Shown here: in pieces, positions 14,856 to 49,676 of the stretch
Layout of the letters: every line of letters starts with the position of its first letter
Position numbering within the stretch: position 1 is the stretch's first letter
DNA from: an uncultured Treponema sp.
Lineage (GTDB): Bacteria; Spirochaetota; Spirochaetia; Treponematales; Treponemataceae
Direction: 5' to 3'
Length of the DNA stretch: 64,000 bases
Assembly (NCBI GenBank): GCA_934691925.1
Contig: CAKUTI010000006.1
Location: 1 to 64,000 of the forward strand
Translations under genes and position numbers: made by a program
Notes under the pieces: model-generated
Databases searched by the model: none
What the model was told of the DNA's origin: nothing
What the model saw: only the letters and a program-made list of their open reading frames with translations

Positions 14856-14890
14856 GCCGCTCTTTAATACAAGAGCGGCTTTATTTTTTT
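14856..14890 (+). terminator. Rho-independent terminator of the ribosomal operon
   Basis: GCCGCTCTT (14856-14864) pairs perfectly with AAGAGCGGC (14871-14879) around the loop TAATAC, followed by TTTATTTTTTTT. It is oriented for + strand transcripts and closes the 14.8-kb cluster. The opposite strand lacks a T-run, so it does not obviously serve pepF. Confidence 0.93.
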
Positions 14891-16719
14891 TAAATCTTTT
14901 TCAATAGAGAAACGAATTCATCGATTTCTTTTGTGTAGATTGAAATCGCCTTTGTCCAAGTTTTTTCATCTTGAATGTCGAGCTCTGCAATCTTGCACAA
15001 ATCTTCACAAGACATATTTCCTGTTTTGCTTAAAATTTCAGGATAAATCTTTGTGAACGAATCTCCTTTTTCTTTGTACTGCTCGTAAAGCGACATTGCG
15101 AAAAGCTGCCCGAAAGCGTAAGGATAATTGTAGAAATCGAATCCTGTTGAATAATAATGCGACTTGACCGCCCACATATATTCGTGCTTTTCCGCGCCGA
15201 GTCCGCTTCCATAAGAGTCTTCCTGCGCTTTTTTCATAAGCCGGCAGAAATCTTCTGAATTAAGCTCTCTTTTGCTCCGCTCGCTGAAAACCGCACGCTC
15301 AAAATAAAACCTGCTCAGAATATCGACTAGAACTTGGCTTGCGTCTTGAAGGTCAAGCTCTAGAGCCTGAACCTTGCTGAAGCCTGACGCCTTATTGATA
15401 ATGTCCTGCTTTACGATTGTTTCAGCGAAGGTCGAGGCAGTTTCCGCGAGAGTCATCGGATAATCGAAAAACATTGCCGGCTGGTTTTTCATGCATGAAA
15501 AATGGTAAGCGTGTCCAATCTCGTGGGCGAGCGTGATTACATCGGAAAAAGAGCCTGTGAAATTGCTTAGAATCCGGCTTTGATGTCCGAGCGGAATGTC
15601 CTCGTCGTATGCGCCGCCGACTTTTCCCGGCCGGATTTCAGCGTCAATCCAGTTTTTCTTATAGGATTTTTCCGCGAAATCTCCCATCTCCTTGCTGAAC
15701 GAGTAATATTTTTCAATCACGTACTGAATCGCCGCCTCAAATGTCCATTTTTTTGAGAGAAGCGAATCTTCAGACTTTTGATTGGGATTTTCAATCGGCG
15801 CGAAAAGGTCATAAAAAGCGATTCCGTCAGAAGTGTCGCTTGAAACTGTCATTCCGTGTTTTTTCAGATAGCTTGCCTTCGCCTGAAAATATTTTCGCCA
15901 TTCCGGGAGAGATTTTTCGATTGCCGAAATAAGCGCGTCGAGCGATTTTTTGCTTAGCCTGCTTGTCAAAAGTGAGCGTTCAATCGCCTCCGAGAAATTT
16001 CGCCGCTTGTTCAGCGTGATTGTCTCGCCTTTCAGGTTGTTGAGGCTGGCCGCAAGCGCGATTTCGTTCTGCTTTAGAAGCGCGATTTCTTTTTTGTAGG
16101 ACTCAAAGCGAAGTTTCGGGTCTGGAGAGAAAGCGTCGTTTCTAAGCTCGTTGAAAGTTTTTCCAGTTTCGCTGTCTTTCAGGTTTGAGATTATCTGCTC
16201 GTGGAGTTTTTCCCAGGCGTTTCCGCCGGTCTGCTGAATCTCCGATGCAAGTTTTTCAAGCTCGCCCGGCATCTGATGCTCAATTGCTTCAACTGCTTCC
16301 TTTAAAATAAATTCATAATTCTTGAATTCGGGATTTTTTGTAAAGAAAGATTCTAGATTTTGACGGTTTTCTTTCAGAATCGTCTGAAATTTTATCTCAA
16401 TCTGCTGTTTTTGAATCAGAAGATTGTCAACCGAGGAAATATTGTTCAGATAATCCGTGTTCGTCGTGTCAACAGAATAAATCAGATACGCGTAGGAATT
16501 GAGCGTGCGCGAAAATGAAGCCAGTTCGTCGAAAAGTCCGATTGCGGTTTTTAGCCAGCCGCCGAAATTTTCTTTTGCGTTTTTGGAATCGGCAAGATGA
16601 TTTTCAGTTTTTGCAAGAAGATTCTTGAAATCAGCAAGATAATTTTCGTATTTTTCAGATTTTATCGAGCTGAAAACCGAGTCTAGATTCCATCGTGGAG
16701 CATTTAAATTTGTTTTCAT
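14890..16719 (-). CDS. pepF: Oligoendopeptidase F family (M3) metallopeptidase
   Basis: Cytoplasmic zinc endopeptidase degrading short peptides. The 609-residue product has the M3 zinc site HEIGHAYH at about residues 399-406, with the upstream segment FTGSFSDVITLA and the downstream family context (ETASTFAE). The start chosen is the ATG at 16719 (MKTNLNAPRWNLDSVF); a 21-residue in-frame extension to 16782 is unlike the family. On the - strand TGC-TAAAAT (extended -10, 16727-16735) stops only seven bases before this ATG and there is no Shine-Dalgarno, so a leaderless transcript is likely. Confidence 0.93.
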   Translation of the reverse strand: MKTNLNAPRWNLDSVFSSIKSEKYENYLADFKNLLAKTENHLADSKNAKENFGGWLKTAIGLFDELASFSRTLNSYAYLIYSVDTTNTDYLNNISSVDNLLIQKQQIEIKFQTILKENRQNLESFFTKNPEFKNYEFILKEAVEAIEHQMPGELEKLASEIQQTGGNAWEKLHEQIISNLKDSETGKTFNELRNDAFSPDPKLRFESYKKEIALLKQNEIALAASLNNLKGETITLNKRRNFSEAIERSLLTSRLSKKSLDALISAIEKSLPEWRKYFQAKASYLKKHGMTVSSDTSDGIAFYDLFAPIENPNQKSEDSLLSKKWTFEAAIQYVIEKYYSFSKEMGDFAEKSYKKNWIDAEIRPGKVGGAYDEDIPLGHQSRILSNFTGSFSDVITLAHEIGHAYHFSCMKNQPAMFFDYPMTLAETASTFAETIVKQDIINKASGFSKVQALELDLQDASQVLVDILSRFYFERAVFSERSKRELNSEDFCRLMKKAQEDSYGSGLGAEKHEYMWAVKSHYYSTGFDFYNYPYAFGQLFAMSLYEQYKEKGDSFTKIYPEILSKTGNMSCEDLCKIAELDIQDEKTWTKAISIYTKEIDEFVSLLKKI

Positions 16720-16735: not shown

Positions 16736-16911
16736 CAGTTGGGAAAAAAGATGTATAAACGAAGACTGATGGACCGAGTCACGAAAATTAAAAGTCTTAG
16801 TTTTCGTGATGTTTTCGGAAGATTTGTGGTTTTGCAGTTTTGCCGTTTTTTGAATTCAAAGTCAGAAAAAAATGTTCGATTTTGGAAGTTGTCTTAAAAT
16901 TTATTTTGCAG

Positions 16912-16932
16912 ATGCTGAAATAAATTCAGCAT
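16912..16932. repeat. REP-like hairpin in the pepF upstream gap
   Basis: ATGCTGAA (16912-16919) pairs perfectly with TTCAGCAT (16925-16932) around ATAAA and is followed by GATA. The stem ends in the style CTGAA...TTCAG-ATGA, which resembles small intergenic hairpins scattered in many bacterial genomes. The surrounding 16735-17093 stretch contains no ORF; a G/C-rich piece at 16970-17005 looks like a degraded repeat. Confidence 0.5.
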
Positions 16933-17093
16933 GATACGGAAGAAAAGTCAGCATGACGAGGTGTCTTAACGGCGTGCCTCGCGGTGCGGCTATCAGCGTA
17001 ACTGTTTAAAGGTAAATTCCTTGTGACAATGAAATTTGCAAGACATTTTCAAAATCAAAAAATTAGTACGATTGGAAAAATCAAAATCGGTTT

Positions 17094-17303
17094 TCGTACT
17101 GAGTACGATTTTTGCATTTTGTGAAAACGCGGTTCGTACTGAATACGATGCGTGGCTTTTGCAAAAAGAATGAATCGTACTGAATACGAATGTCGGTTTC
17201 TAAGAGAAATCATAATCGTAATGATGATGATTGAGAAAATGCTTATAAAGCGGCTTTCGTACTGAATACGAATCCTGACTTTTTAAAATTTTGAATTCGT
17301 ACT
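17094..17303. repeat. Periodic array of 15-bp palindromes, period 40-41 bp
   Basis: The unit TCGTACTGAATACGA (inverted arms TCGTA/TACGA) occurs at 17094 (central G instead of A, making a perfect six-base inverted repeat), 17134, 17175 and 17257. Half-sites lie exactly in register at 17216 (TCGTA) and 17297 (TCGTACT), and an off-register GTACGA half-site lies at 17066. Starts are 40, 41, 41, 41 and 40 bp apart. The 25-26 bp between units is unrelated from gap to gap. No ORF covers it. It lies between the 3' end of the esterase gene and the 5' side of pepF. It is CRISPR-like in geometry, but the repeats are too short and no cas gene is present. Confidence 0.9.
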
Positions 17304-17343: not shown

Positions 17344-18198
17344 CTAATCTAAAAGCGGAGTTATCCAGTTCTTGAAAAGCTCCGGCCAGATTTCACATTC
17401 CTTTTCGATGTTTGAGCCGTCAGCGTTTGAAGTTTGCGTCGAGGAAAGCGCAAGCCCGTGTTTTCCTCTGTTGAAAAGGTGGTATTCAAAGTCGATTTTT
17501 TCCCGTCGGAGAGATTGAATCAGAAAAAGCGTGTTTTCGGCTGGAACGGCCTCGTCCTGAAGCGTGTGCCAGACAAAGCTCGGCGGAAAATCCTTTGAAA
17601 TATGCTTTTCAACTGAAAAAACGTCACTGATTTCATTGCAGTCTGCAAGTTTCTTTAAATTTTGCTTTTCATTTTCAGTGAGATTTTCGAGAAGAGCATT
17701 CACAGAACCTTCGTGGCAGAAATCCTTTTCGGCGGTTATCACAGGATAGCAGAGCGCGAGAAAATTCGGCTTTATCTGTTCTGCTTTCAGGTCTGTGAAT
17801 TGGGAAATCAGCTTTGAATTCCAGTACGCTCCGAGAGTCGCCGCCAAGTGTCCGCCCGCGCTGAATCCAAGCACGATGATTTTGTTCTCGTCAATGTTCC
17901 ATTCTGTGGCGTTTTTTCTAACGAAAGCGACTGTCTCGGCAGCGTCTAAAAGCGGCTCGGGAAATTTTGTCGGCTTTAGGCTGTAGTGAAGAACAGCGCA
18001 GCTGAACCCGAGGGAAAGCATTTTCAGCGCGATTTCTTCCTGCTCATGCCGCCCGTAATGGTCGTAGCCGCCGCCCGGAATTATCAGGATAAAAGGCCTT
18101 TTTTCAGACTTTGGATTGTCGTTTTTTTGAAGAATATATGTTTTTATTGAGGGAATCTGTTTTCCGTGGTTTTTAATTTTAAATGTTTCGTGAATCAT
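17344..18198 (-). CDS. Alpha/beta hydrolase, esterase (BD-FAE/acetylesterase type)
   Basis: The 284-residue cytoplasmic protein has no signal peptide. It has an oxyanion-hole motif PGGGY (about 41-45), the nucleophile elbow GFSAGGH with Ser113, an acid in the segment QDEAVPAEN, and a histidine in GKHGL, giving a complete Ser-Asp-His triad. This pattern fits the acetyl-xylan/feruloyl-type and HSL-like carbohydrate esterases; the substrate cannot be read. No Shine-Dalgarno is visible before MIHETF. It stands alone, downstream of no other - strand gene. Confidence 0.85.
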   Translation of the reverse strand: MIHETFKIKNHGKQIPSIKTYILQKNDNPKSEKRPFILIIPGGGYDHYGRHEQEEIALKMLSLGFSCAVLHYSLKPTKFPEPLLDAAETVAFVRKNATEWNIDENKIIVLGFSAGGHLAATLGAYWNSKLISQFTDLKAEQIKPNFLALCYPVITAEKDFCHEGSVNALLENLTENEKQNLKKLADCNEISDVFSVEKHISKDFPPSFVWHTLQDEAVPAENTLFLIQSLRREKIDFEYHLFNRGKHGLALSSTQTSNADGSNIEKECEIWPELFKNWITPLLD

Positions 18199-27414: not shown

Positions 27415-27562
27415 AGGAAGCATACCTTCGCCCTGAAGTAAGCCTTCCTAAGAGCTGAAGTAAGCCTTCCTAAGGCCTGAAGGAAGTATACCTTTAGTCC
27501 TTAGGAAGTATACCTTTAGTCCTTAGGAAGTATACCTTTGGCTCTTAGGAAGCCTGCCTTTT
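27415..27562. repeat. 22-bp tandem repeat array, six full units plus a partial
   Basis: Units begin at 27415, 27437, 27459, 27481, 27503, 27525 and 27547 with an exact 22-bp period. Units 4 and 5 are identical, starting AGGAAGTATACCTTTAGTCC. Units 2 and 3 share AGTAAGCCTTCCTAAG. Units 1 and 6 are intermediates. The unit carries AAGG...CCTT inverted arms around GTATAC. The array is non-coding, between the lipoprotein remnant and a convergent - strand operon. The remaining bases up to 27728 hold one hairpin element and nothing else I can see. Confidence 0.93.
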
Positions 27563-38446: not shown

Positions 38447-41400
38447 CTACGCAGCATCTCCAAGCCAGCCGTAATGCTGTACAGCCATATCAACAAAATG
38501 GTTAAGCAGCAGATTGATTTTTGAATCAAATGCATCTTTGTCAAAGCTTTGCGGCAAGTCCGCATCTAGTGAGGAAATAATCGCATCCTTTACTGTTGTA
38601 GAAGCCTGATTGTCCTTGTACCAGTCTACAACAAAGAGGTTTTGCTTTTCTTCTGTAAGTTTTTTGTACAGATTTTTAGCAGCGAGCTTTACACTCATTT
38701 CTTCATCTTTCGTGAGTTTCCGGCCTTTTATAAGCAGGTCAAACATTTCAAGTTCTTCTTCGGCAAGACCTTCTGTTTCAGCACGCTTATCTTCTTTTTT
38801 CATGTCTTCAATAAGCTGCAGGAGCTGCTCATAATACTCTTCATTTTCACTGCCGCCGGCATTGTACTGGTCTATGATGTTTTTGAACCGTTCACTGAAT
38901 TTTATCCGCCCGCAGTTTTTGTTAATCATAATCTTGAGCATCTTCTGAATGAACTCTTTCATGTTGTCAATTTCGATTGCTTTGTATTGAGCCTTGTGAA
39001 TCTCTTTTCTAAGCTCTTCCACATCAACTTTGGAAAGGTCAATGACTTTGAATTCGTGAATGAGATAATCAGAAGATTTCTTGCCGCTCGGGTCGCTTGT
39101 GTCTTCCGGTTTTTCTGAACTGACTGATGTGTCAAGCAGAGCCTGCATTCTTGCCTTTGCACGGTCAAGTTTTTCATCATTAACATTGTTGTTCATTAAA
39201 TCATTTAGGTATTTTAACGGCTTAAATTTTTCGTTCTGCCAGCCCATTTCAAAAATCTCAGGCTTGCTGGCTTCGTAAAGATTAAGCATTGTATTTGTAA
39301 TAACGCGGAACTTTTCTTTGCCTTCGTCTTTCTGGTAGATGATTTCCAGCGCGTTTCGCAAGGCTTCGAGTTTTTCCAAATCGCCAGAAAGTTTATTGAT
39401 TTTTTCAAGGCTTATATCAAGTTCCGATAAAAACTCGTCTGCCTCATCAATGCTTTGGTCAATCAGTTCAAGAAGATACTCAATATTTTTTGCCGGAAAC
39501 TCATTGCCGTCATCGCCAGTTGCATAATCGGTAAGCGCCTGCTGCATGTACTTAAATACATTTACATAATCAACAATAATGCCGCTTGTTTTTCCCGGAT
39601 AGACACGGTTTGCACGGGCAATTGCCTGCATAAGAGTGTGTCCTTTCATCGGCTTATCAAGATAGAGCGTAGAAAGATTCGGCACGTCAAAGCCTGTAAG
39701 CCACATTGCACAAACAAAAACAAGCTGCAGCGGATCTTTTTTATCTTTGAAGCGGTCTTCTATATCTGCGCCGTCAACAACAGCATTCATCTTGTCGCGG
39801 TGAGGCTTTATGTTTAATCCCTGTTCAGCAAACTTCTTTTCTTCGTCTGTGTCTTCAGAAATTATCACAGCCATTTCAACATTGTTCATGTAATCAAGAC
39901 GAGCTTTTATTTCGTCGCGCTCTTCTTTTGTCTCAGCATTGCTGCGTTCTATTATCAGCTGTTTCTTTTCCAAATCCCAGTAGTGCTGAACCTTGTCGTA
40001 CATTTTTACAGCGGTAAACTTATCAACCGAAACAACCATTCCCTTTCCAAGAAATCCGCGGCGTGGAAAATGATGCGCAATATCTTGAGCAATTTTATCA
40101 AGGCGTTCATCACGTTTGAGAACTTCAATTATCTTGCTTCCGGAATCTTCAAGCTTTTTGATTTCTTCTTCGTTCAAGTTTTCATCTTCAATGATGTCTA
40201 AAATATCATCATCAAGGAAGTTGTTTGTAAGTCCCACTTCCGGCACACGGCGGCTGTAGAAAAGAGGCACTGTAGATCCGTCTTCTACCGACTGGGCAAA
40301 ATTATATTCAGAAACATAATCTCCAAACCACTGGTTTGTCAGACGTTTTGAGCCAAGCAGCGGTGTTCCAGTAAATGCAATAAAATTTGCATTTGGCAAA
40401 GCTGTATGCATATTCTCTGCAAGGTCCTTATACTGGGTGCGGTGAGCTTCATCTATCAAAACAAAAATGTCGTTGCGCTCACTGAGGACAGGATATTTCT
40501 TTCCTTTGTCATAACGGAATTTATGAATCATTGAAAAAATGAATTTCTTGTTGCTTTTAAGATATTCGCGGAGCTGCTGCGAATTTTTAGGCTGACATTC
40601 TTCTTTGTTGCCAATCACTTCTGTGCGCACAAAGTTTTTGTAAATCTGAGTGTCAAGATCTGTTCGGTCGGTAACAATAAAGAAAGTGAAATTGCCCTTT
40701 AACTTGCGGGCGCATTTCCGTGCAAAGAAGACCATTGAATATGATTTTCCAGAGCCTTGCGTATGCCAAAAAACGCCAAGTTTTCCTTTAAGTTCTTCTC
40801 GGCGTTCAGCATTTTTCATAAGATTATTAACGCCAAGAAACTGATGGTTCTTTGCAATAATTTTGATTTTCTGGTTCTGGAACAAAATAAAGTTTTCGAT
40901 GTAGTCAATAAGATGTTCTTTCTTGCAAAGACCGCGTGCAAAGTATTCAATGGAAACTCCATGCTCTTTTATGTCCTTGCGGTTTGGCTTTTCAGATTCG
41001 CTTTCCGCTTTTAGCCATTCAAAGAAAAATTCATAATCTGCGTTCCATGCGCCAAGCCGGGTTTCAAGCCCATTGCTCAAAACACAAATCTGATTAAAGG
41101 CAAAAAGATTCGGGATGTCTTTTTTATAATCAGTCAGATTCTTGTTAAAGGCCTCTTCCATTTTGATAATGGCATTTTTTAGTTCAACAAAAACAAGAGG
41201 AAGCCCGTTTACAAAAATAATCACATCTGGCCTACGCCAGCAATACTGTCCCTGAATCCACATCTGCGAAACAGCAGTAAAAATGTTGTTTTCTGGATTC
41301 TCAAAATCAATCAGCTTTACAAAATCAAAAGTTTGCTTGCCGTCTTTTTTGAAATCAACCTTTTTGCCGTTGCGAATCAGATTGTAATTATCATAATTGG

Positions 41401-41680
41401 TTTTCACCATGTCAGTGCCGGTAAAGTCGCGGCACAATTCCCGGACTACGGAATCTATAATTTCCGTAGGGATATTTGGATTGATTTTATAAAGGGCTGT
41501 TTTTATCTGTTCTGGCAAAACGCATTGTTTTTTAGAAGTGCGGCAAGTTCCGTCATTCAAATCTTCCTTAAAATTTGGATTTGAATCGCACTGAATGAAG
41601 TTATCATAGTCAAGCTCTTTGCTTCTAAGAATGTTTATAAAGGAAGCTTCAATATCGTCTTCTGTAATGTAGTTTGCCAT
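38447..41680 (-). CDS. hsdR: Type I restriction enzyme, R subunit
   Basis: HsdR supplies the nuclease and DNA translocase of the EcoKI-like complex. The 1077-residue protein has the PD-(D/E)xK site RPDVI ... VFVELK (E166, K168), Walker A QGSGKS (309-313) and DEAH at 410-413, with LTGFDVPNLSTLYLDKPMKGH and QAIARANR as later helicase motifs. The C-terminal region (about 800-1060) is helical for HsdM binding. It appears complete. It is separated from the methylase genes by the ATPase and fic genes, an expanded arrangement. Confidence 0.95.
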   Translation of the reverse strand: MANYITEDDIEASFINILRSKELDYDNFIQCDSNPNFKEDLNDGTCRTSKKQCVLPEQIKTALYKINPNIPTEIIDSVVRELCRDFTGTDMVKTNYDNYNLIRNGKKVDFKKDGKQTFDFVKLIDFENPENNIFTAVSQMWIQGQYCWRRPDVIIFVNGLPLVFVELKNAIIKMEEAFNKNLTDYKKDIPNLFAFNQICVLSNGLETRLGAWNADYEFFFEWLKAESESEKPNRKDIKEHGVSIEYFARGLCKKEHLIDYIENFILFQNQKIKIIAKNHQFLGVNNLMKNAERREELKGKLGVFWHTQGSGKSYSMVFFARKCARKLKGNFTFFIVTDRTDLDTQIYKNFVRTEVIGNKEECQPKNSQQLREYLKSNKKFIFSMIHKFRYDKGKKYPVLSERNDIFVLIDEAHRTQYKDLAENMHTALPNANFIAFTGTPLLGSKRLTNQWFGDYVSEYNFAQSVEDGSTVPLFYSRRVPEVGLTNNFLDDDILDIIEDENLNEEEIKKLEDSGSKIIEVLKRDERLDKIAQDIAHHFPRRGFLGKGMVVSVDKFTAVKMYDKVQHYWDLEKKQLIIERSNAETKEERDEIKARLDYMNNVEMAVIISEDTDEEKKFAEQGLNIKPHRDKMNAVVDGADIEDRFKDKKDPLQLVFVCAMWLTGFDVPNLSTLYLDKPMKGHTLMQAIARANRVYPGKTSGIIVDYVNVFKYMQQALTDYATGDDGNEFPAKNIEYLLELIDQSIDEADEFLSELDISLEKINKLSGDLEKLEALRNALEIIYQKDEGKEKFRVITNTMLNLYEASKPEIFEMGWQNEKFKPLKYLNDLMNNNVNDEKLDRAKARMQALLDTSVSSEKPEDTSDPSGKKSSDYLIHEFKVIDLSKVDVEELRKEIHKAQYKAIEIDNMKEFIQKMLKIMINKNCGRIKFSERFKNIIDQYNAGGSENEEYYEQLLQLIEDMKKEDKRAETEGLAEEELEMFDLLIKGRKLTKDEEMSVKLAAKNLYKKLTEEKQNLFVVDWYKDNQASTTVKDAIISSLDADLPQSFDKDAFDSKINLLLNHFVDMAVQHYGWLGDAA

Positions 41681-41686
41681 AAACTG

Positions 41687-42883
41687 CTACTCCTTATTCA
41701 AAAGAAAATCCGCAAGATTTATTATGCTGATACCTTCATATAAGTATTTTTCATGTCTTGTTCTTGCAATTAAAAACTTAGGATAGGCATCTTTTATGCT
41801 CAGCAATGGAGACACTTCCCGTTCAAACGTTTCTGGAGAAGAAATATCGTCGCTAACCTGAATATAGATTTTTTCACTCTGTTTTATTGCCACAAAATCA
41901 ATTTCCTTTTTGTATAATACTCCAGTATAAACTTCATAGCTCCTTCGCAGCAATTCAATGCAAACCATGTTTTCATAAACTCTGCCATAGTCCATATTTT
42001 TTGTTCCGAGAATAGCATAGCGGAAAGAATGGTCAGCAAGATAATATTTGTCCTGGCTTGCAAGATATTTTTTTCCGTGGATGTCATAGCGGCGCACTTT
42101 ATAAAAGGCAAAAGCATTGCAAAGATAATTCAGATATGAGCCTATAGTTTTATCATTTGTTTTTTCATGATTGCTTGTAAGAGTAGCAGCAATCTTACGG
42201 ACTGAAACTTCTGAAGAAATATTGTCCAGCATAAAGTCATTTAATTTATTCAGCAAAAGCTCATTTTTGATTTTATATTTCTGAACAATATCCCGAGTTA
42301 TCAAAGTGTTAAAAACATCTTTTATGTAGGAATACTTTTCTTCAGGAGACTTATAAACGAATGAACCCGCCATTCCTCCTTCCTTTACAAATGAATCAAA
42401 AGCATCCTCGGTGTTGCTGCATGAAAAATATTTCTGGTATTCATAAAAAGAAAAAGGAAAAACTTGAACTTGAAAAACGCGTCCTGTAAAAAGCGTTGCT
42501 AAATCGCTCGAAAGCAAAAAGGCATTGGAACCGGTTATATAAATGTCATATTTTTCGCTTGCATGAAAAGAATTGATTACTTTTTCAAAGTCTGAACAAA
42601 ACTGGACTTCATCTATCAACAGAAAATTGTTTTTATTGCTTTGATAATGTTCTTCAACATAGGAATTCAAGGCAGGCGCAGTTTTAATTGAATCGAACTC
42701 AAAAAGATTGTAATTGATGTGAATGATATTTGCAGCCTTATCTGTTTCTTTTATCCAGTCAATAAATGCATCCATCAGTTTAGATTTACCGGAACGGCGA
42801 ACGCCTGTTATTACTTTTATATCTGGTGTTCCAATTACACTTTTGAGCTTGTCTAAATAAAATTCCCGTTCAATCAGTTTCAT
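41687..42883 (-). CDS. AAA ATPase with DUF4143 (PD-(D/E)xK-like) domain
   Basis: The 398-residue protein has Walker A GVRRSGKS (27-34), Walker B FLLIDEV (about 90-96) and a sensor TGSNAFLLSS. A winged-helix segment near 220-270 is followed by the DUF4143 nuclease-like fold (RVYENMVCIELLRR ... KEIDFVAI). The family is very common in anaerobe genomes, with unclear function. TATACT six bases before the ATG and a perfect 14-bp inverted repeat over the -35 indicate its own repressible, leaderless promoter. The stop lies six bases before the hsdR ATG. Confidence 0.88.
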   Translation of the reverse strand: MKLIEREFYLDKLKSVIGTPDIKVITGVRRSGKSKLMDAFIDWIKETDKAANIIHINYNLFEFDSIKTAPALNSYVEEHYQSNKNNFLLIDEVQFCSDFEKVINSFHASEKYDIYITGSNAFLLSSDLATLFTGRVFQVQVFPFSFYEYQKYFSCSNTEDAFDSFVKEGGMAGSFVYKSPEEKYSYIKDVFNTLITRDIVQKYKIKNELLLNKLNDFMLDNISSEVSVRKIAATLTSNHEKTNDKTIGSYLNYLCNAFAFYKVRRYDIHGKKYLASQDKYYLADHSFRYAILGTKNMDYGRVYENMVCIELLRRSYEVYTGVLYKKEIDFVAIKQSEKIYIQVSDDISSPETFEREVSPLLSIKDAYPKFLIARTRHEKYLYEGISIINLADFLLNKE

Positions 42884-42889
42884 AAGAAA

Positions 42890-43022
42890 AGTATATATTG
42901 CCTATTTCGCAAAATCAATAAAATTTCAATTTTGCGAAATAGAAATCAATATTATTACTTAAAATTGATAAATTTTCATTTTTTGAGTAATAAGTGTTCA
43001 GTTTGTTACTCAAAAACAATGA
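42890..43022 (-). promoter_or_regulatory. Promoter and inverted-repeat operators of the DUF4143 ATPase gene
   Basis: On the - strand: -35 TTGATT (42918-42913), 17-bp spacer, -10 TATACT (42895-42890), then six bases to ATG. A perfect 14-bp inverted repeat, CTATTTCGCAAAAT (42902-42915)/ATTTTGCGAAATAG (42929-42942), overlaps the -35. Upstream, TTTTTGAGTAA (42980-42990) pairs with TTACTCAAAAA (43006-43016). The half-sites are related (ATTTTG-G-AATA), with another like them at 43038-43053. The rest of the fic-ATPase gap is AT-rich with no ORF. Confidence 0.72.
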
Positions 43023-43099
43023 ATTGTCAATTTTGAGAAATATGTTCATGCGCAAATTTTCTGAAATCTTGTGGATGAATTGGATATTTGCGGAAAAAC

Positions 43100-43148
43100 A
43101 GGGGAAATTTTCCCTTAATTTCCTCTAATTTCCCTTATTTTATCTTCA
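43100..43148. repeat. 49-bp direct repeat, fic-proximal copy
   Basis: These 49 bases are identical to 44456-44504. This copy contains the last codons and stop of fic (read on the - strand). The sequence is AT-rich and contains CCCTTAATTTCCTCTAATTT. The two copies are 1,356 bp apart and bound exactly the fic gene. Confidence 0.97.
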
Positions 43149-44413
43149 AAATCTTCCGCCCTTAAATATCCAACAAGACGTTGGTTTAGCGGATATGTTT
43201 TTAATAATCCTATTTTTACAAGCCCTTCTAAATCAGATCTAATTGTTTTAACAGATACACCTAATTCCGTCTGCAAATCTTTGCTTGTAAATATTGTGCT
43301 TGGTTTTTCAGTTGCAATTTTAATGATTTGCGCTTGTCGTTCGTTAATGCCTATTATCGACTTGAATTCAAACAAGGCACTCCGCTCTTTTGATTTTCGT
43401 TCAAGATATTTAGTCAACTCAATAAACGATTTATTCAGCACTACAAGATTGTAATTTATAAAATATCCTAAATCATAATCATCATGCTCAGTATACAAAA
43501 AAACTTTCTCATATTTATCTTTTGAAGCATATATGATTCTTGAAATAGATAGAAATTCTGTAAGCCAATAACCCTTTTTAAGCATATACCAGTAAAAAAG
43601 CGAACGGGCTGTCCGGCCATTTCCATCAGTAAAAGGATGCAGAAATGAAACTACAAAGTGAATAATTATTGCCTTTATAATTGGATGAACGAAAGTTTCA
43701 TCTTTGTTTGCAAAATCGCATAAATCATTTAAGACAGTTTCAATTTCGTTATAATCTGGAGGTTTATGTGCTATTTCTCCAGTTATATTATTTGAAACAA
43801 CTATATCATTGCTGTTTCTGAATTGGCCTTCTTCAGCTGAGTTTTCCAGAGTTTTTTCTGTTATTCGTCTATGTATTTCCAACAATAACTCTTTGGTTAA
43901 GGTGTCGTTCTTCTTTTCAGAAAGGAATCGAATTGTTTTATAATTATTCAATATCATTTGTTGGCTTGAATCTTTAGGCTTTTTTTGTTTTTGAAGCATT
44001 TCTTTTGCAACTTTTCGCGTTGTAGATGCACCTTCCATCTGGCTAGAGGCAATTGCTTCTTCCATAATTGAACTAAGCAAATAATACTGTTTTGTTTTTT
44101 CAGTTATCATGTTGTCAGAAGATAAAGTACCTCCAAAATTCATATCAAAATCATGAAGGTATTTTTGCATATAATCATTTATCTTGTATTTGAAAATATA
44201 TTTACCAAACGAAACCTCATTAGACATACGAGTTAATTTTATTGCTGCCCAAAAATCTTTTGGATTTATTCCTTCTGGTGAATTATATTTTACCTTGTCC
44301 CAGTAGTAATAATTTTCATCTACTTTTCTAAAATAGTTTTGATATTCTGGATTGATTATTAGCGAAACAGATGTTTCGGGATTAAAATCAGACTTTGGCG
44401 GATCTTCAATCAT
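43115..44413 (-). CDS. Fic-domain protein with inhibitory motif and winged helix
   Basis: Fic proteins transfer AMP (or related groups) to target hydroxyls. The 432-residue protein has SSQMEG near residue 125, matching the inhibitory [S/T]xxxE[G/N] motif in the N-terminal position. The active loop HPFTDGNGRTAR starts at H259. A C-terminal winged helix (TSKDLQTELGVSVKTIRSDLEGL) follows at about 375-405. All catalytic residues are present. It is inserted between hsdS and the ATPase and flanked by 49-bp direct repeats, so it looks like a recently acquired cassette in the restriction locus. It is more AT-rich than its neighbours. Confidence 0.92.
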   Translation of the reverse strand: MIEDPPKSDFNPETSVSLIINPEYQNYFRKVDENYYYWDKVKYNSPEGINPKDFWAAIKLTRMSNEVSFGKYIFKYKINDYMQKYLHDFDMNFGGTLSSDNMITEKTKQYYLLSSIMEEAIASSQMEGASTTRKVAKEMLQKQKKPKDSSQQMILNNYKTIRFLSEKKNDTLTKELLLEIHRRITEKTLENSAEEGQFRNSNDIVVSNNITGEIAHKPPDYNEIETVLNDLCDFANKDETFVHPIIKAIIIHFVVSFLHPFTDGNGRTARSLFYWYMLKKGYWLTEFLSISRIIYASKDKYEKVFLYTEHDDYDLGYFINYNLVVLNKSFIELTKYLERKSKERSALFEFKSIIGINERQAQIIKIATEKPSTIFTSKDLQTELGVSVKTIRSDLEGLVKIGLLKTYPLNQRLVGYLRAEDFEDKIREIRGN

Positions 44414-44455
44414 AATTTGAATTTAACATAGATGTGTTGTATTAGCAAGGAAATT

Positions 44456-44504
44456 AGGGGAAATTTTCCCTTAATTTCCTCTAATTTCCCTTATTTTATC
44501 TTCA
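44456..44504. repeat. 49-bp direct repeat, hsdS-proximal copy
   Basis: Identical to 43100-43148. It includes the last codons and stop of hsdS (SGKLKIK). The hsdS reading frame differs from the fic frame in the same repeat, so the two proteins do not share their C-terminal residues. Confidence 0.97.
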
Positions 44505-45651
44505 GTTTGCCGCTCATAAGGCGTGGCAGTAGCAGGCCGCGCTGCTGGGTTAGGTTGGAGATTTGTTGCTGAAGATTATCAATTTTTTCAAAAACGCAAT
44601 CTGCTAGTTTATTAAATCTGTTACACAAAGATATTTCAGGCAAAACAAATTTCATTGAAGCAAAATTATTATATCGCAATGAGGGAACTGTTGCTCCTGT
44701 TGCAACAGACAGAAAATATTTTCTGTTAAGCATAAGCACATAAAAAAGAAATTTTCCAAAATTAGAACATTTAGGTTCAACACAATAACATCGTTGATGA
44801 AGATTAAACTTTCCTTTGTAATAACGAGGAATAAAAGATGTGCCCTCGCCTGGAACTATAATTGCTTCACAATCTTTTATCCATTCATTGCTTTTCTTTA
44901 TTTCTTGTGAACGGTCAAATAATGGATAAATGCCATCTTCTTCTGCATCTTCTCTATTACATTTTCCAGTAGAAATATTAGCAACATTTTCTAATTTCTC
45001 TACTTTCCACCCCGCAGGTAGTCCGTTTTCAAACTTGGCGGTTTGATAGCCGGGAAAGCGGAAGCGGACGAACCATTCTTTGTAGAGCTCGCTTGCGGCG
45101 GTCTGCAGGGCTTTTATCTGCTTTTTGTAGTTTTGTATAAGGTCGTCGTAGGCTGAAAGTATTGAGGCAATTTTTTTCTGTGTGGGGAGAGGGGGAAGTT
45201 GAACTTTTAATTTTTTTATTTTATCCACATTTAAATTTGGTTGAGCGCCTCCAGTTTTGTATAAAACCAATTGTTGATACTGTGTCCATAAATAATAATA
45301 TACAAATGCATAATGAGCTATTTTTTCATTTATTTGTAAATTACAGCAAGCTTGATTTGTTGACAGCGGTATTTTATTAACAGCAACTCTTCCCGCAGTA
45401 TATCCTTGTCCATACATTGCAACAATTATGGAATTAACAGGTATTAATTTAGCACTTGAATTTTTTAGCCCCTTCTCGGAAATAAAATTTTCTGTTTTAT
45501 AAATATAAGAATAATTGACTTCCCCAGTTTTTAACCAAGGTATAGTTGCTGGATAATAATAGTCCTTATTTGATGTAAGAGGTGTACCACCTGATATAAC
45601 TTTATCACAAATATCTTGTATTTTACATTCTTTCCATTCTTTCATTTTCAT
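44491..45651 (-). CDS. hsdS: Type I restriction enzyme, specificity subunit
   Basis: HsdS dictates the DNA target of the methylase and nuclease. The 386 residues form two target-recognition domains (about 5-150 and 210-340). A conserved helical spacer joins them (PLPTQKKIASILSAYDDLIQNYKKQI, then ELYKEWFVRFRFPGY), and a second conserved helix (CVFEKIDNLQQQISNLTQQRGLLLPRLMSGKL) lies at the C-terminus. A start at the second ATG is also possible. A single hsdS is present, with no inverted-repeat shuffling partner in the window. Confidence 0.94.
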   Translation of the reverse strand: MKMKEWKECKIQDICDKVISGGTPLTSNKDYYYPATIPWLKTGEVNYSYIYKTENFISEKGLKNSSAKLIPVNSIIVAMYGQGYTAGRVAVNKIPLSTNQACCNLQINEKIAHYAFVYYYLWTQYQQLVLYKTGGAQPNLNVDKIKKLKVQLPPLPTQKKIASILSAYDDLIQNYKKQIKALQTAASELYKEWFVRFRFPGYQTAKFENGLPAGWKVEKLENVANISTGKCNREDAEEDGIYPLFDRSQEIKKSNEWIKDCEAIIVPGEGTSFIPRYYKGKFNLHQRCYCVEPKCSNFGKFLFYVLMLNRKYFLSVATGATVPSLRYNNFASMKFVLPEISLCNRFNKLADCVFEKIDNLQQQISNLTQQRGLLLPRLMSGKLKIK

Positions 45652-45665
45652 ATTTCCATATTCTT

Positions 45666-45684
45666 GGAATTACGTTATAATTCC
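45666..45684. promoter_or_regulatory. Hairpin between the Bro-N gene and hsdS
   Basis: GGAATTA (45666-45672) and TAATTCC (45678-45684) form a perfect seven-base stem with loop CGTTA. Directly beside it, GTGTG...TACAC spans the stop codon of the Bro-N gene. A similar GTGTG...CACAC pair spans the ORF6N stop at 47004-47018, so the two accessory genes share a 3'-end structure. Confidence 0.5.
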
Positions 45685-45702
45685 CAACCCGTGTGAAATA
45701 TC

Positions 45703-46941
45703 TTACACCATTTTCAAATCTGCAAAACTTTTCTGCAAATAGCTCTCGAACAATTTTGGTGCAGGAAGCCCCAATTCTTCTGTATTTTTTTGCATCTCAT
45801 CAGGAACAACATATTCAATTTTTATCTGCCGTGATGTAATTATGAAAAGCATTCCTACAGCGTTGTTTTCATCTTTGCGTTTATGCTTTGTGTCATAGAA
45901 TTGTATCTGTTCTTTGAAAATCTGCAGTTCTGAAGCTGACAGATGATTTCGGCAAATTTTAAGCAGAATATTTCTCCTTGAGGGAATATGATAATAAAGC
46001 TGGTCGATTACAAAATATGAATCTTTATACGGCACACGCAGTTTTTCATTGCTAAAGCCAAAAGAAAAATCTGTTCCCAAAATAAAATTTCGAACTGGCA
46101 GATATAACTGTTCTTTTTTTGACTCTATCTGCGACTCAAAATAATCTTTTGCATTCAGCGGCGTAACAACACTTCTGCCAGTCTTGCTTTCTAATTCACG
46201 GCGAGCAACTGCTGCAACGGTTCCGCCTTCATGTGCACAGTGAGCGTTCTCTTCAAGAGTTTGCGGATTCTTTGCTTTTGTTATGCTTGTTGTTGAAAGT
46301 TCCGCAAGCATGTTCAAAATGAGTTCTTCATTCGTCATGTTATCGCGAAGATTTTCTTTTTTGAGTCCTTTAAACTGCTTGTATTCCTTTGCCGTTTTTT
46401 CAGCCCATGCCTGATAAATTATATCCGTAAGAGCCGCATAATGAACACCTTCTTCAACATTATGAGCTTTCCATTGGTCGGTTAAATCTTTTCTTATTTC
46501 TATTGATTTTAACCGCTGATTAATCCAATCATCTGAATATCCGAGCCTGCGGTAATCTTCCAGACCTTGTTTTATAGAAAGTTCCGGATCTTGATACTGC
46601 TCCAAACGTTCTGCGCCCACTTTTGCAAGCCATTGCTTGAACGGTTCTGCTTTTTTTGATGGAATTGATTGAATTATGCGGAAAAGCCCCTGTGTATTTG
46701 CAAAATTCGTTTTTTGCATTCCCCCAGCAGTCGAAACAGAAAGGAGGGTGACAATTTGTCCCCACCCTTTGCCAAGCTCTTCATCGCGTTTACGCATCTT
46801 TTTAATATAGTCACTTACATTTGCAGAATCAGTCAAAATCTGTACAACATCATTAACCGAGAAAAACCATTCCTCTTTTTCATCATCCCAAACGGAGCGA
46901 ACTAATTTATCTTCAAAAAGTTTTATCGAATTCCTTTTCAT
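45703..46941 (-). CDS. Bro-N antirepressor-like (DinD type) protein with degenerate DUF1016 nuclease end
   Basis: Residues 1-120 form a Bro-N/antirepressor domain (LVRSVWDDEKEEWFFSVNDVVQIL, YIKKMRKRDEEL). The middle (about 120-270) resembles DinD proteins (RRLGYSDDWINQRLKSIEIRKDLTDQW). The C-terminal 120 residues match the plan of DUF1016/YhcG nuclease domains (DFSFGFSNEKLRVPYKDSYFVIDQLYYHIPSRR), but the expected ExK after the Asp strand reads KIC, so catalysis is doubtful. The ATG overlaps a remnant of the hsdM 3' end in the same ATGA configuration as real hsdM uses. Such genes are frequent passengers in type I loci (from memory). Confidence 0.78.
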   Translation of the reverse strand: MKRNSIKLFEDKLVRSVWDDEKEEWFFSVNDVVQILTDSANVSDYIKKMRKRDEELGKGWGQIVTLLSVSTAGGMQKTNFANTQGLFRIIQSIPSKKAEPFKQWLAKVGAERLEQYQDPELSIKQGLEDYRRLGYSDDWINQRLKSIEIRKDLTDQWKAHNVEEGVHYAALTDIIYQAWAEKTAKEYKQFKGLKKENLRDNMTNEELILNMLAELSTTSITKAKNPQTLEENAHCAHEGGTVAAVARRELESKTGRSVVTPLNAKDYFESQIESKKEQLYLPVRNFILGTDFSFGFSNEKLRVPYKDSYFVIDQLYYHIPSRRNILLKICRNHLSASELQIFKEQIQFYDTKHKRKDENNAVGMLFIITSRQIKIEYVVPDEMQKNTEELGLPAPKLFESYLQKSFADLKMV

Positions 46942-46997
46942 TTCCCAAACAGCTCCTTCAAATTATCTGTAATTTGTTTTTCCAGAGTGGCGGTTTC
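46935..46997. repeat. Remnant copy of the hsdM 3' end
   Basis: These 63 bases match 47903-47965 at about 56 positions. Read on the - strand they encode LEKQITDNLKELFGK and a TGA overlapping the Bro-N ATG, while true hsdM ends LEKQIADNLKELFGE with a TGA overlapping the ORF6N ATG. No hsdM sequence continues beyond it, since the ORF6N gene ends just upstream. Confidence 0.88.
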
Positions 46998-47012
46998 CAG
47001 TCCGTGTGGCTA

Positions 47013-47909
47013 TCACACATTCTGCAAAATCGCCGTAATAAGCGATGAAGCCAATAATTCAAACGCAAAGCACTTTTTGCCCAAGTCTTTTAGAGAAGCT
47101 CCTATGTGATACAAAGTCTTTCCGTCAATAATCAAAAATCTGTCGTGCATTTTTGTAGTATGTTTTAGTGCAAGAGCCGGATATTGCGCATTGAATTTTT
47201 GAATATCCTGTGCGGTAAGCGGCGTCTTTGGGGCTGTGTAAATTGTTACCTGAACGTCCTTTTTCTTTTTTGCAAGCCGTTCCAAAATTGAAAGATCAAC
47301 ATAGCCGTCTATCAAAACAATTTCTTTTTTTGCCTGCGCAATAAAACTTTCAAACTTTGCATAAGCGTCAAAAATCTGTCCCTGAAAGAAAATGCCCTGT
47401 TTCTCTTCCACTTTGTATTTGTCCATAAGCGTAAAAAGCTCGTCAATCCGCTTGTCCGCTTCTTTTTGATGAATGTTTGTATCAAGAAGATTTTGCTTTA
47501 TTGTGTTGATTTCAGCAAAAATATTTGCATTATTCTGAAGAAAATGTTTCATTTCCTTGAACATTCTGATTAGCATTTTGCTTTGAGCGACGGCAAGTTC
47601 TCCTTTCAGGACTGTCATCAGCATATAAATGCCTTGTTCTGTAAATGCGTAAGGCTTATATCTTGTTCCGCCCCAACTTGAGGTGGAATTTTTGCACCTC
47701 AAGATTTCGTTGAATTCATCGTTTGTCAGTTGAAATCTGAAATCTTCGTCGAATCGCTCAATATTGTTTTTTACTTGCCTGTTAAAATCCTTTGTTTCAT
47801 AGCCATAGATTTCCGCCAGTTCAAAATCCAGCATCACTTGTTCGCCGCGGATTATGTAGATTTTATCTTTTATCCATTCGCTATTGTGTATTGCTATTTC
47901 GTTTTTCAT
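47013..47909 (-). CDS. ORF6N-domain protein with phospholipase-D-like C-terminus
   Basis: The 298-residue protein starts with an ORF6N domain (VMLDFELAEIYGYETKDFNRQVKNN, then FRFQLTNDEF and YAFTEQGIYMLMTVLKG), known from phage antirepressors. A helical linker follows, then a C-terminal part like one PLD/HKD half-domain (EIVLIDGYVDLS ... TKMHDRFLIIDGKTLYHIGASLKDLGKK), with H-x-D-R in place of the HxK motif. Nuclease or lipase activity is therefore uncertain. Its ATG overlaps the hsdM stop (ATGA). It is probably a regulator or toxin-like accessory of the restriction system. Confidence 0.85.
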   Translation of the reverse strand: MKNEIAIHNSEWIKDKIYIIRGEQVMLDFELAEIYGYETKDFNRQVKNNIERFDEDFRFQLTNDEFNEILRCKNSTSSWGGTRYKPYAFTEQGIYMLMTVLKGELAVAQSKMLIRMFKEMKHFLQNNANIFAEINTIKQNLLDTNIHQKEADKRIDELFTLMDKYKVEEKQGIFFQGQIFDAYAKFESFIAQAKKEIVLIDGYVDLSILERLAKKKKDVQVTIYTAPKTPLTAQDIQKFNAQYPALALKHTTKMHDRFLIIDGKTLYHIGASLKDLGKKCFAFELLASSLITAILQNV

Positions 47910-47965
47910 TCCCCGAACAGCTCCTTCAAATTATCTGCAATCTGTTTTTCCAGAGTTCCGGCTTC
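47903..47965. repeat. Genuine hsdM 3' end, parent of the remnant at 46935-46997
   Basis: This segment holds the last hsdM codons and the ATGA overlap with the ORF6N gene. With its diverged partner it brackets the ORF6N gene, as the 49-bp repeats bracket fic. Confidence 0.88.
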
Positions 47966-49648
47966 TTTGCTCAAGGTTTCAAGCTCGGTGTTGAGGTCCA
48001 GCATTTTCTTTTTGAACTCTTTTTCTGTCATGCCGTCATCTTCTATTACAACTCCTACGTAGCGGCCGGCGTTGAGGGAATAATTCTGGTCTGCAATTCC
48101 GTCTTCACCCTGAATGCTTGCGGCTTTGCAAAGGCCTATTACATCGCGGTAAGTGCCGTCTGGAAAGCGTTCTGTAAGCCAATCTATCTGGCTCTTCCAG
48201 TAGGCTTTTGTTTTTACTTCTTTGTCATCGCTAGCTTGAGGAGCAGTGTTTAGGGCTTCGGTGTATTCTGCAACAAGGTCTTTGAAGGCCTGCGTGTCGC
48301 CATCGTAAAGCCGGGTGATGATTCCTAAATTTTTTATCTGTTCACCGCTGAATTTTCTGTGCGCGCGGTCTACCTGTATAAAGATTGAGCGGGCATCTAT
48401 AAAAAGGATTTTGTCTTTCTTTTTGGCATTTTGAGTTTTCTGCTTGTCGAAAAACCAAAGGGTTGCAGGAAGCGTAACGGAAGAAAACATATTGCTTGGA
48501 AGCGTTACCATCTGGCTGATGATTCCCTCTTCTATCATCTTTTTGCGGATTTCGAGTTCTGAACCGCCTGCATCGCTTGCGGAGTTTGCCATAACAAGGG
48601 CGGCTTTTCCTGTCTGATTGAGGGAGCTTGCAAAATAACTTATCCAAAGATAGTTTGCGTTTGGAACTGTTTCTTTTTTGTCGCTGCCTTTTTTTGCGGT
48701 TTTTGACTTATTCTTTGGAACTCCGTAGATGTTAAAGCGCGGGTCGTCTTTTACTTTGTCATAAACAACTTCGTCTACGTTGAACGGCGGATTTGCCATT
48801 ACATAGTCAAATTTGCCTACTGCGTTGTACGGGTCTGAATAAAAGGAGTTTGCTTCTACAATTTCGCCGCGGACGTTGTTCAAAAGAAGATTCATTTTTG
48901 CAAGCTTTACTGTGTCTGGCTCTTTTTCAACTCCGTAGCAGCGGAACTTCATCACTTCGTCAGACGTTTTGTTGTGGCGGTGCATAAAGCGGGCAGCCTG
49001 CACGAACATACCGCCGGAACCGCAGGCCGGGTCTAAAATTTTCTTTTCGCCATTCTGCGGCTGAAGAACTTCCACCATATAGCGGACTACGGTTGCAGGC
49101 GTATAGAAAGTTCCGCCGTCTTTTCCTTCCTGAAGGGCAAACTCTCCAAGGAAGAATTCGTAGATTTCACCAAAAAGGTCTACGCTGATATTTTCGGGAA
49201 TATCCATAAAGATTCGCATGATGTTGGAAAGAAGTTCTGGTTCTTCCTCGGGCACGAGCTGGCCGTACACTTCTTTTGGAAGAACTCCGTCCATCTTTTC
49301 GTTTTCGCGTTCTATAGCTTCCATCGCCTTTTTTACAAGCGTTGCTTTGTTCGCGTCATCCGGCGCGTCATTTATTGTTGTGTAATAGGCTTCTGGCGGA
49401 AGGTAAAATCCGCAGTGTTTGATTGAAATGTCTTTTATGGATTTTTCGGCGCGTGTGCCTTTTGATTTATTGTATTCTGCCTCTATTTCTGCCTTGTGCT
49501 GTTTATAAAGAATGTCTGCATAGCGTAAAAAGATTAGCCCTAAAATTGGCTGCCCGTATTTATTTGCCGCAAGGTGCGCTCCGGCACGAAGAACGTCTGC
49601 TGCGTGCCAAAGATTGTCTTTTAAGTTTTTGAGTTCTGAGTCAGTCAT
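47906..49648 (-). CDS. hsdM: Type I restriction enzyme, DNA methyltransferase subunit
   Basis: N6-adenine methyltransferase of the complex. The 580-residue protein has the SAM motif DPACGSGGMF (D206) and the catalytic NPPF (286-289). An N-terminal helical domain starts MTDSELKNLKDNLWHAADVLR, and a C-terminal coiled segment (FKKKMLDLNTELETLSKEAGTLEKQ) docks HsdS. The start is the second in-frame ATG, preceded by GGAAG; the first adds four residues. It is the first gene of the island transcript. Confidence 0.95.
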   Translation of the reverse strand: MTDSELKNLKDNLWHAADVLRAGAHLAANKYGQPILGLIFLRYADILYKQHKAEIEAEYNKSKGTRAEKSIKDISIKHCGFYLPPEAYYTTINDAPDDANKATLVKKAMEAIERENEKMDGVLPKEVYGQLVPEEEPELLSNIMRIFMDIPENISVDLFGEIYEFFLGEFALQEGKDGGTFYTPATVVRYMVEVLQPQNGEKKILDPACGSGGMFVQAARFMHRHNKTSDEVMKFRCYGVEKEPDTVKLAKMNLLLNNVRGEIVEANSFYSDPYNAVGKFDYVMANPPFNVDEVVYDKVKDDPRFNIYGVPKNKSKTAKKGSDKKETVPNANYLWISYFASSLNQTGKAALVMANSASDAGGSELEIRKKMIEEGIISQMVTLPSNMFSSVTLPATLWFFDKQKTQNAKKKDKILFIDARSIFIQVDRAHRKFSGEQIKNLGIITRLYDGDTQAFKDLVAEYTEALNTAPQASDDKEVKTKAYWKSQIDWLTERFPDGTYRDVIGLCKAASIQGEDGIADQNYSLNAGRYVGVVIEDDGMTEKEFKKKMLDLNTELETLSKEAGTLEKQIADNLKELFGE

Positions 49649-49676
49649 GAAATCTTCCAAAAATATTTTTGTGTTG

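What the first reader, a model, noticed from the sequence alone, without database searches (positions are those of the whole stretch)
17066..17303. Helically phased array of 15-bp palindromes with unrelated 25-26 bp spacers
TCGTACTGAATACGA or its half-site recurs at 17094, 17134, 17175, 17216, 17257 and 17297, a 40-41 bp period equal to about four DNA turns. Constant spacing with non-conserved spacers means the palindromes, on one face of the helix, are what is selected. This looks like a multimeric operator, a nucleoid or partition-protein loading site, or a novel CRISPR-like minimal array. It sits in a 600-bp gene-free gap.
Basis: seen in the sequence. Interest (0 to 1): 0.85.

Follow-up and report, generated by a model that had tools for sequence, protein, structure and literature searches.

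The report
Solo palindrome array, DUF6261 repeat family
This stretch is a row of DNA palindromes, four helix turns apart, of a type that in some gut and marine bacteria sits just upstream of genes of an uncharacterised family (DUF6261); the palindromes look like docking sites for that protein, and their sequence varies widely between gene copies.

Summary
In detail: four exact TCGTA-N5-TACGA palindromes (the only four in 64 kb), one decayed copy and two half-sites, 40-41 bp apart, between pepF and a hydrolase gene of a Treponema-like chromosome. The spacers are not blank: 9 of 10 tested places carry a T- or A-tract (shuffles 1.5). The same palindrome and period occur in Treponema-family and Draconibacterium genomes beside genes of one unstudied family, DUF6261. 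In that family a 40-43 bp array lies upstream of 49 of 59 genes and downstream of 0 of 58; in a second set upstream of 92 of 108. Genomes hold up to 52 or more copies. In the first set the palindrome co-varies with residues 6-11 of the protein; a second set, poor in similar palindromes, did not reproduce this. Best reading: DNA-level docking arrays for a helical DUF6261 protein that reads the palindrome with its N-terminal arm. The window holds a solo array; no DUF6261 gene is in it and its whole genome is not held. Binding is inferred, not shown.

The parts
17065..17071 (+). half-site AGTACGA at the left edge of the array
17094..17108 (.). palindrome unit 1, TCGTACTGAGTACGA; the identical 15-mer makes up the DUF6261-linked array of Draconibacterium mangrovi (L020)
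17134..17148 (.). palindrome unit 2, TCGTACTGAATACGA
17175..17189 (.). palindrome unit 3, TCGTACTGAATACGA
17216..17239 (+). decayed unit 4, TCGTAATGATGATGATTGAGAAAA; its spacer is the one most like the spacer of two Treponema-family MAGs (58% against 35 +/- 6% for shuffles; the other four spacers 35-42%)
17257..17271 (.). palindrome unit 5, TCGTACTGAATACGA
17297..17303 (+). half-site TCGTACT at the right edge of the array
17109..17296 (.). stretch that holds the five 25-26 bp spacers; T-tracts 14-20 bp after and A-tracts 14-20 bp before a palindrome centre in 9 of 10 places

Best explanation
The feature is a solo member of a class of phased palindromic arrays, undescribed in the papers I could search, whose usual home is just upstream of DUF6261 (PF19775) genes. 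SHOWN: the shared palindrome and period, the DUF6261 link in two phyla, the 40-43 bp period kept across unrelated palindromes, dyad-placed A/T tracts, and (in one data set) co-variation of the palindrome with residues 6-11 of the protein. INFERRED: DUF6261 binds DNA as a dimer or larger oligomer; an N-terminal extended arm reads the palindrome half-sites while the helical body joins neighbours; sites four helical turns apart lie on one face of the helix, so that several units are bound cooperatively and the A/T-tract-bearing DNA between them is bent or wrapped. Upstream of its own promoter such a complex would regulate the DUF6261 gene; solo arrays such as this one would be bound in trans, or be remnants of lost gene-array cassettes.
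For: TCGTA palindromes at 41-bp period in Treponema-family MAGs G001/G002 and in Draconibacterium, 125-155 bp from DUF6261 genes that are 37% identical. Arrays upstream: 49 of 59 by self-lag, 0 of 58 downstream; 58 of 62 by a loosened TRF; 92 of 108 in a second set, or 89 of 105 distinct proteins; 36 of 38 in a third. Palindrome score of units 6.29 against 4.12 for shuffled units. Four-base A/T runs peak at -16 and +15/16 from the palindrome centre, 13.8 and 9.2 against about 2.0 expected, 138 units. N-terminus: class-linked difference ratio 2.41 in the first 20 alignment columns, 0.86-1.47 elsewhere (25 proteins); partial Mantel r=0.32 and 0.28 for the two N-terminal windows (0 of 2000 permutations for the first), all later windows -0.08 to 0.08 (66 proteins). 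Linkage control at DNA level: codons 6-11 give 3.71, the 90 bp before the start codon 1.16-1.24, codons 1-5 1.31, codons 12-47 0.96-1.16 (25 genes). A rule noted beforehand agreed in 7 of 7 new genes to which it applied (again with the original core list). Promoter-like sequences lie between array and gene in L109, L111, L020 and L021 (read by eye).
Against: No binding was measured. Of seven proteins checked six are acidic (net -15 to -4), one is +4. The co-variation was not reproduced in the second set (r=0.02, 216 of 1000 permutations reach it; the rest of the protein did better, 0.15); there only 6 of 2556 pairs have similar palindromes, against 97 of 2145 in the first set. Exceptions: L173 has an N-terminus like L111 but an AAATTTCAAATGAAATTT palindrome; L230 (STSRVTEVD) has a non-TCGTA array; L340 and L344 do not fit. 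No DUF6261 gene is in the window (four tblastn queries; family profile at E<=10) and no whole genome is held for it. TCGTA pairs at 41-42 bp also occur in six genomes or records without a DUF6261 match. Some arrays end 11-43 bp before the start codon (L123, L152, L139, L143) and may be transcribed; in L020 and L021 the one Bacteroidota motif that I counted (TAnnTTTG) lies above the array, not below it. G.U mismatches in the stems slightly exceed A.C (100 to 73, with 208 other mismatches).
Confidence: 0.68

Rival explanations
1. RNA device: the arrays are transcribed and each unit folds into a hairpin that DUF6261 binds or processes, in the manner of type III toxin-antitoxin repeats or a structured leader.
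For: Tandem repeats directly upstream of one gene; palindromes can be drawn as hairpins; the window array folds with z=-6.5 (expected of any palindromic array); G.U slightly above A.C (100 to 73); some arrays end 11-43 bp before the start codon; TAnnTTTG motifs above the array in L020 and L021.
Against: Promoter-like sequences sit between array and gene in four loci (by eye); the constant 41-42 bp period and two-sided A/T tracts near +/-16 have no clear need in RNA; the wobble excess is weak; the protein model is all helical, unlike known type III toxins (toxin fold recalled).
Confidence: 0.15
2. Simple minisatellite or repeat element with no bound protein: short palindromic units amplified by slippage and carried along with a duplicating DUF6261 cassette.
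For: Units within an array are often near-identical, spacers included; related cassettes match from the array to about the gene's end and often no further, for example L185/L186.
Against: In the window the intact palindromes stay 97% identical while spacers fell to 40%; arrays of unrelated sequence share period, palindromicity and upstream placement.
Confidence: 0.08
3. Operator array for an unrelated regulator (for example a TetR-type repressor) of pepF or the hydrolase, with no tie to DUF6261.
For: TCGTA pairs also occur at 35 bp (nine loci) and, at 41-42 bp, in six genomes or records without a DUF6261 match.
Against: The window shares a 15-mer, the 41-bp period and a spacer trace with DUF6261-linked arrays. 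No array at 40-43 bp stood out in 30 hydrolase loci of relatives, five of them with pepF in the same order, though that scan would barely see the window's own array (z 4.4).
Confidence: 0.09

Closest known systems
DUF6261 (Pfam PF19775) proteins
   Same: Genes carrying TCGTA palindromes at 41-bp period in Treponema-family MAGs and Draconibacterium
   Different: No described function found; the single paper found with the name (PMC10376253, search listing only) concerns daptomycin resistance in Streptococcus oralis; the window array has no such gene beside it
Ribbon-helix-helix repressors on tandem operators (Arc, MetJ, CopG, omega, ParG; recalled)
   Same: N-terminal extended segment that seems to read DNA, followed by two helices; arrays of short palindromes beside the gene
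   Different: No Pfam RHH match for 8 N-terminal pieces at E<=10; a long helical bundle follows; period of 41-42 bp; many paralogs with differing palindromes
Plasmid centromere arrays (parC/ParR, parS/ParG, omega; recalled)
   Same: Iterated sites beside the gene of the presumed binding protein
   Different: Neighbours differ from copy to copy by eye; many copies per chromosome
REP elements and RAYT transposases (PMC3733652, passages read)
   Same: Intergenic palindromes, many per genome; CGTC repeats are reported in Bacteroidetes and Spirochaetes
   Different: Fixed 41-42 bp period and placement at DUF6261; no Y1_Tnp match in G002, G106 or G472, which carry such arrays
TIGR-Tas arrays (PMC12045711, passages read)
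   Same: Regular array of short units; a version with palindromic stem-loops exists
   Different: TIGR has two 8-12-nt repeats with 9-nt spacers, 36-nt RNAs and a Nop-domain protein; DUF6261 has no Nop match in Pfam
Type III toxin-antitoxin repeats (ToxIN; recalled)
   Same: Tandem repeats of similar length just upstream of one gene
   Different: All-helical protein model; promoter-like sequence between array and gene in four loci (by eye)

Membership tests
DUF6261-associated phased arrays (class defined here) | 40-43 bp period over at least 3 units | tested here: met
   spacings 40, 41, 41, 41, 40
DUF6261-associated phased arrays (class defined here) | palindrome shared with a DUF6261-linked array | tested here: met
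   TCGTACTGAGTACGA identical to L020 array units; inner 13 bp identical to L361
DUF6261-associated phased arrays (class defined here) | A/T tracts about 16 bp either side of the palindrome centre | tested here: met
   9 of 10, shuffles 1.5; distance taken from the family profile, T/A polarity chosen after seeing the window and not seen in the family as a whole
DUF6261-associated phased arrays (class defined here) | DUF6261 gene just downstream | tested here: not met
   no match in the window; arrays without the gene in the held stretch also exist in G001, G002 and Draconibacterium
CRISPR array | spacers unique and of outside origin | tested here: not met
   in relatives the spacer is repeated with the unit
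CRISPR array | cas genes | tested here: inconclusive
   no PADLOC match for the two window neighbours and three DUF6261 proteins; other genes not scanned
TIGR-Tas | Nop-domain Tas protein | tested here: not met
   four DUF6261 proteins: only PF19775 above its cut-off, no Nop model at E<=1; other genes near the window array not scanned with Pfam
TIGR-Tas | two short repeats with 9-nt spacers per unit | tested here: not met
   one 15-bp palindrome and a 25-26 bp spacer per unit
REP/RAYT | Y1_Tnp (RAYT) gene in the genome | tested here: not met
   no match in 3 of 9 array-bearing genomes (G002, G106, G472), 5 of 9 over the cut-off; genomes may be incomplete
Type III toxin-antitoxin | tandem repeats directly upstream of the protein gene | tested here: met
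   (for the family, not for the window)
Type III toxin-antitoxin | ToxN-like ribonuclease fold | tested here: inconclusive
   AF2 model all helical, pLDDT 93.9; no PDB match at E<=0.001
Ribbon-helix-helix DNA-binding proteins | RHH sequence profile | tested here: inconclusive
   no match for 8 N-terminal pieces at E<=10, filters apply
Ribbon-helix-helix DNA-binding proteins | paired N-terminal strands in a dimer | not testable with these tools
   only single chains could be modelled
Plasmid-type partition centromere | NTPase partner gene beside the array | tested here: inconclusive
   neighbours differ from copy to copy by eye; not annotated by profile

The most novel reading that the evidence does not exclude
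A new kind of genetic element: a gene-plus-array cassette that multiplies in bacterial chromosomes (up to 52 or more copies found), in which the protein body and four-turn array geometry stay the same while the palindrome and a matching six-residue N-terminal reader drift together, so that one cell comes to hold many separate DNA-protein address systems, with solo arrays as further addresses in trans.
Probability: 0.3. Interest if true: 0.93.

Novelty: new variant of a known kind. Interest (0 to 1): 0.8.

Why it matters
It gives a candidate partner site to a domain of unknown function that is multicopy in many Bacteroidota and some Treponema-family genomes, and a natural series of over 100 protein-palindrome pairs from which a DNA-recognition code in six residues could be read and tested. 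If copies are insulated from each other, it offers many separate repressor-operator pairs and raises the question why some genomes keep about 50 of them.

Full report
The array. The window is a Treponema-like chromosome segment (ribosomal protein operon; pepF at 14890-16719, from its ATG, and an alpha/beta hydrolase at 17344-18198, both on the minus strand; names by eye). Between them, 17094-17303 holds four exact TCGTA-N5-TACGA palindromes, one decayed copy and an end half-site, 40-41 bp apart, with another half-site at 17065. No other exact site exists in 64 kb.

Spacers. By identity they look unrelated (40% against 37% shuffled, P=0.04), while the four intact palindromes are 97% identical. 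But T-tracts 14-20 bp after and A-tracts 14-20 bp before each palindrome centre occur in 9 of 10 places; 5000 spacer shuffles gave a mean of 1.5 and never 9. The distance was taken from the family profile; the T/A polarity was chosen after seeing the window and is not a family trait.

Relatives. A scan of the genome collection for two TCGTA-N5-TACGA sites 20-30 bp apart gave 40 stretches, and viral contigs gave two. They fall into kinds: 41-42 bp arrays in two Treponema-family MAGs (G001, G002), Draconibacterium, a Parabacteroides, a Tannerellaceae MAG, a Rhodothermaceae MAG and one viral contig; single 41-bp pairs in L002, L023, L028 and L040; nine pairs at 35 bp; 20-22 bp repeats; and others. 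In G001/G002 the unit is TCGTAATSATTACGA plus a conserved spacer; in Draconibacterium it is mostly TCGTACTSAGTACGA, which includes the window's first unit exactly. The window's decayed unit keeps a spacer trace of the Treponema form (58% against 35 +/- 6%). A scan of 274 genomes of G002's family found exact pairs only in G001 and G002.

The partner gene. In L035, L027, L020 and L021 the array lies 125-155 bp from a gene of one family, DUF6261/PF19775; the Treponema-family and Draconibacterium versions are 37% identical. DUF6261 occurs in 27 of 274 genomes of G002's family, 61 of 120 of G004's (Draconibacterium), 39 of 59 of G007's (Parabacteroides) and 3 of 118 drawn from G004's phylum; G445 and G472 reach 52 scored copies each, the number that was scored. 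Of 32 further genomes or records behind the pattern scan, 6 have the gene: 5 of the 11 with 41-42 bp spacing and 1 of the 21 others. The six at 41-42 bp without it are G006 (one of its arrays lies inside an open frame of 14-residue repeats), virus record G009 and the four single pairs.

General rule. Of 60 DUF6261 loci, 49 of the 59 with enough upstream DNA have their strongest self-lag at 40-43 bp upstream (z>4), and 0 of 58 downstream. Tandem Repeats Finder, loosened, finds a 40-43 bp array upstream of 58 of 62, 92 of 108 in a second set (89 of 105 distinct proteins) and 36 of 38 in a third; the sets share some genomes. In the second set the best repeat of 20 bp or more, where there is one, has a 40-43 bp period in 92 of 99. 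The palindrome differs widely, yet unit consensuses are far more palindromic than shuffles (6.29 against 4.12), and A/T runs gather near +/-16 bp (138 units). Related cassettes match from the array to about the end of the gene and often no further (L185/L186 in one genome).

A reading head. In one Treponema clade (about 82-85% identical proteins), five palindrome classes differ almost only in the first dozen residues (LPLT, IALV or ISLV, IFLG, VYVG). Over 66 proteins a partial Mantel test gives r=0.32 for the N-terminal window and about zero beyond it. At DNA level codons 6-11 differ 3.7 times more between classes than within; the 90 bp between array and start only 1.16-1.24 times and codons 12-47 0.96-1.16 times (25 genes), so a shared recombination block is a poor explanation. 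A rule noted beforehand held in 7 of 7 new genes to which it applied. Against this, the second, Tannerellaceae-rich set gave r=0.02 (216 of 1000 permutations reach it) and 0.15 for the rest of the protein; it has only 6 similar-palindrome pairs among 2556 (97 of 2145 in the first set), so it lacks power, but it is not a replication. Exceptions are L173, L230, L340 and L344. CGTA-type palindromes go with TT-x-RVTE-like N-termini in L109, L111, L020, L021 and L361.

Insulation. Similar palindromes are rare among copies of one genome in G445 (5 of 253 pairs; four of these are between copies whose first 26 residues are identical) and G472 (0 of 45), but common in G107 (5 of 28) and G106 (3 of 21). 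So separate addresses per copy hold for some genomes only.

Protein. The AlphaFold model of the L035 protein (68-sequence alignment) is confident (pLDDT 93.9) and all helical, with an ordered but coil-like N-terminus, helix 10-26 and a long helix 34-84. That order recalls ribbon-helix-helix proteins, but no profile match supports it and fold matches are generic bundles.

DNA or RNA. Promoter-like sequences (TTTACA-17-TATAAT in L109/L111; TTTG-20-TATCTTTT in L020/L021; consensus recalled, read by eye) lie between array and gene, the period is four turns, and the tracts lie on both sides of the dyad: I favour DNA. Stem mismatches (G.U 100, A.C 73), TAnnTTTG motifs above the array in L020 and L021, arrays close to the start codon in some loci and the strong fold of the window array (z=-6.5) leave an RNA role open.

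Solo arrays. G001 has TCGTA arrays on four contigs, one beside DUF6261; no DUF6261 gene was found in the stretches held around the other three (L007 and L031, L031 being a 3.9-kb contig; L171). In G002 one of two is solo in 7 kb (L177). Draconibacterium L009, L010 and L039 are solo in the 8 kb held; L010 and L039 share neighbours. The window fits this kind.

Literature. DUF6261 occurs in one open paper, about another subject (listing only). Searches on repeats and palindromes in these groups gave one REP paper (passages read), a chicken chromosome paper (listing) and nothing; a search on ribbon-helix-helix operators gave 15 papers, 10 listed, not read. Subscription papers and preprints are not covered.

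Noticed in passing
window 16911-16958: A second palindromic element (GATGCTGAAATAAATTCAGCAT and ...GTCAGCATGACG) lies in the same gap between the array and pepF; CAGCATGACG occurs once in the window.
   Followed up: partly
window 38447-49660: Looks by eye like a type I restriction-modification cluster (HsdR-, HsdS- and HsdM-like) with Fic-, ATPase- and other accessory-like genes between (no profile run).
   Followed up: no
window 27432-27552 and 42903-43042: Other tandem repeats: two adjoining 22-bp arrays and a 50-bp array of about 2.8 copies.
   Followed up: no
G445, G472, G470, G008, G007: 38 to 52 (capped) DUF6261 genes in single genomes of about 3-4 Mb; palindromes mostly differ between copies in G445 and G472.
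   Followed up: partly
L158-L195 (G106, G107, G254): Downstream neighbour of DUF6261 is often a signal-peptide or lipoprotein-like protein on the same strand, some with 69-bp LRR-like repeats nearby; by eye only.
   Followed up: no
L003, L004, L006, L013, L014, L016, L019, L024, L029: Pairs of TCGTA..TACGA palindromes exactly 35 bp apart in distant phyla, none with DUF6261 found in the genome; perhaps a TetR-type double operator.
   Followed up: no
L036 1-324: A 42-bp TCGTA repeat in a Rhodothermaceae MAG lies inside an open frame of 14-residue repeats.
   Followed up: no
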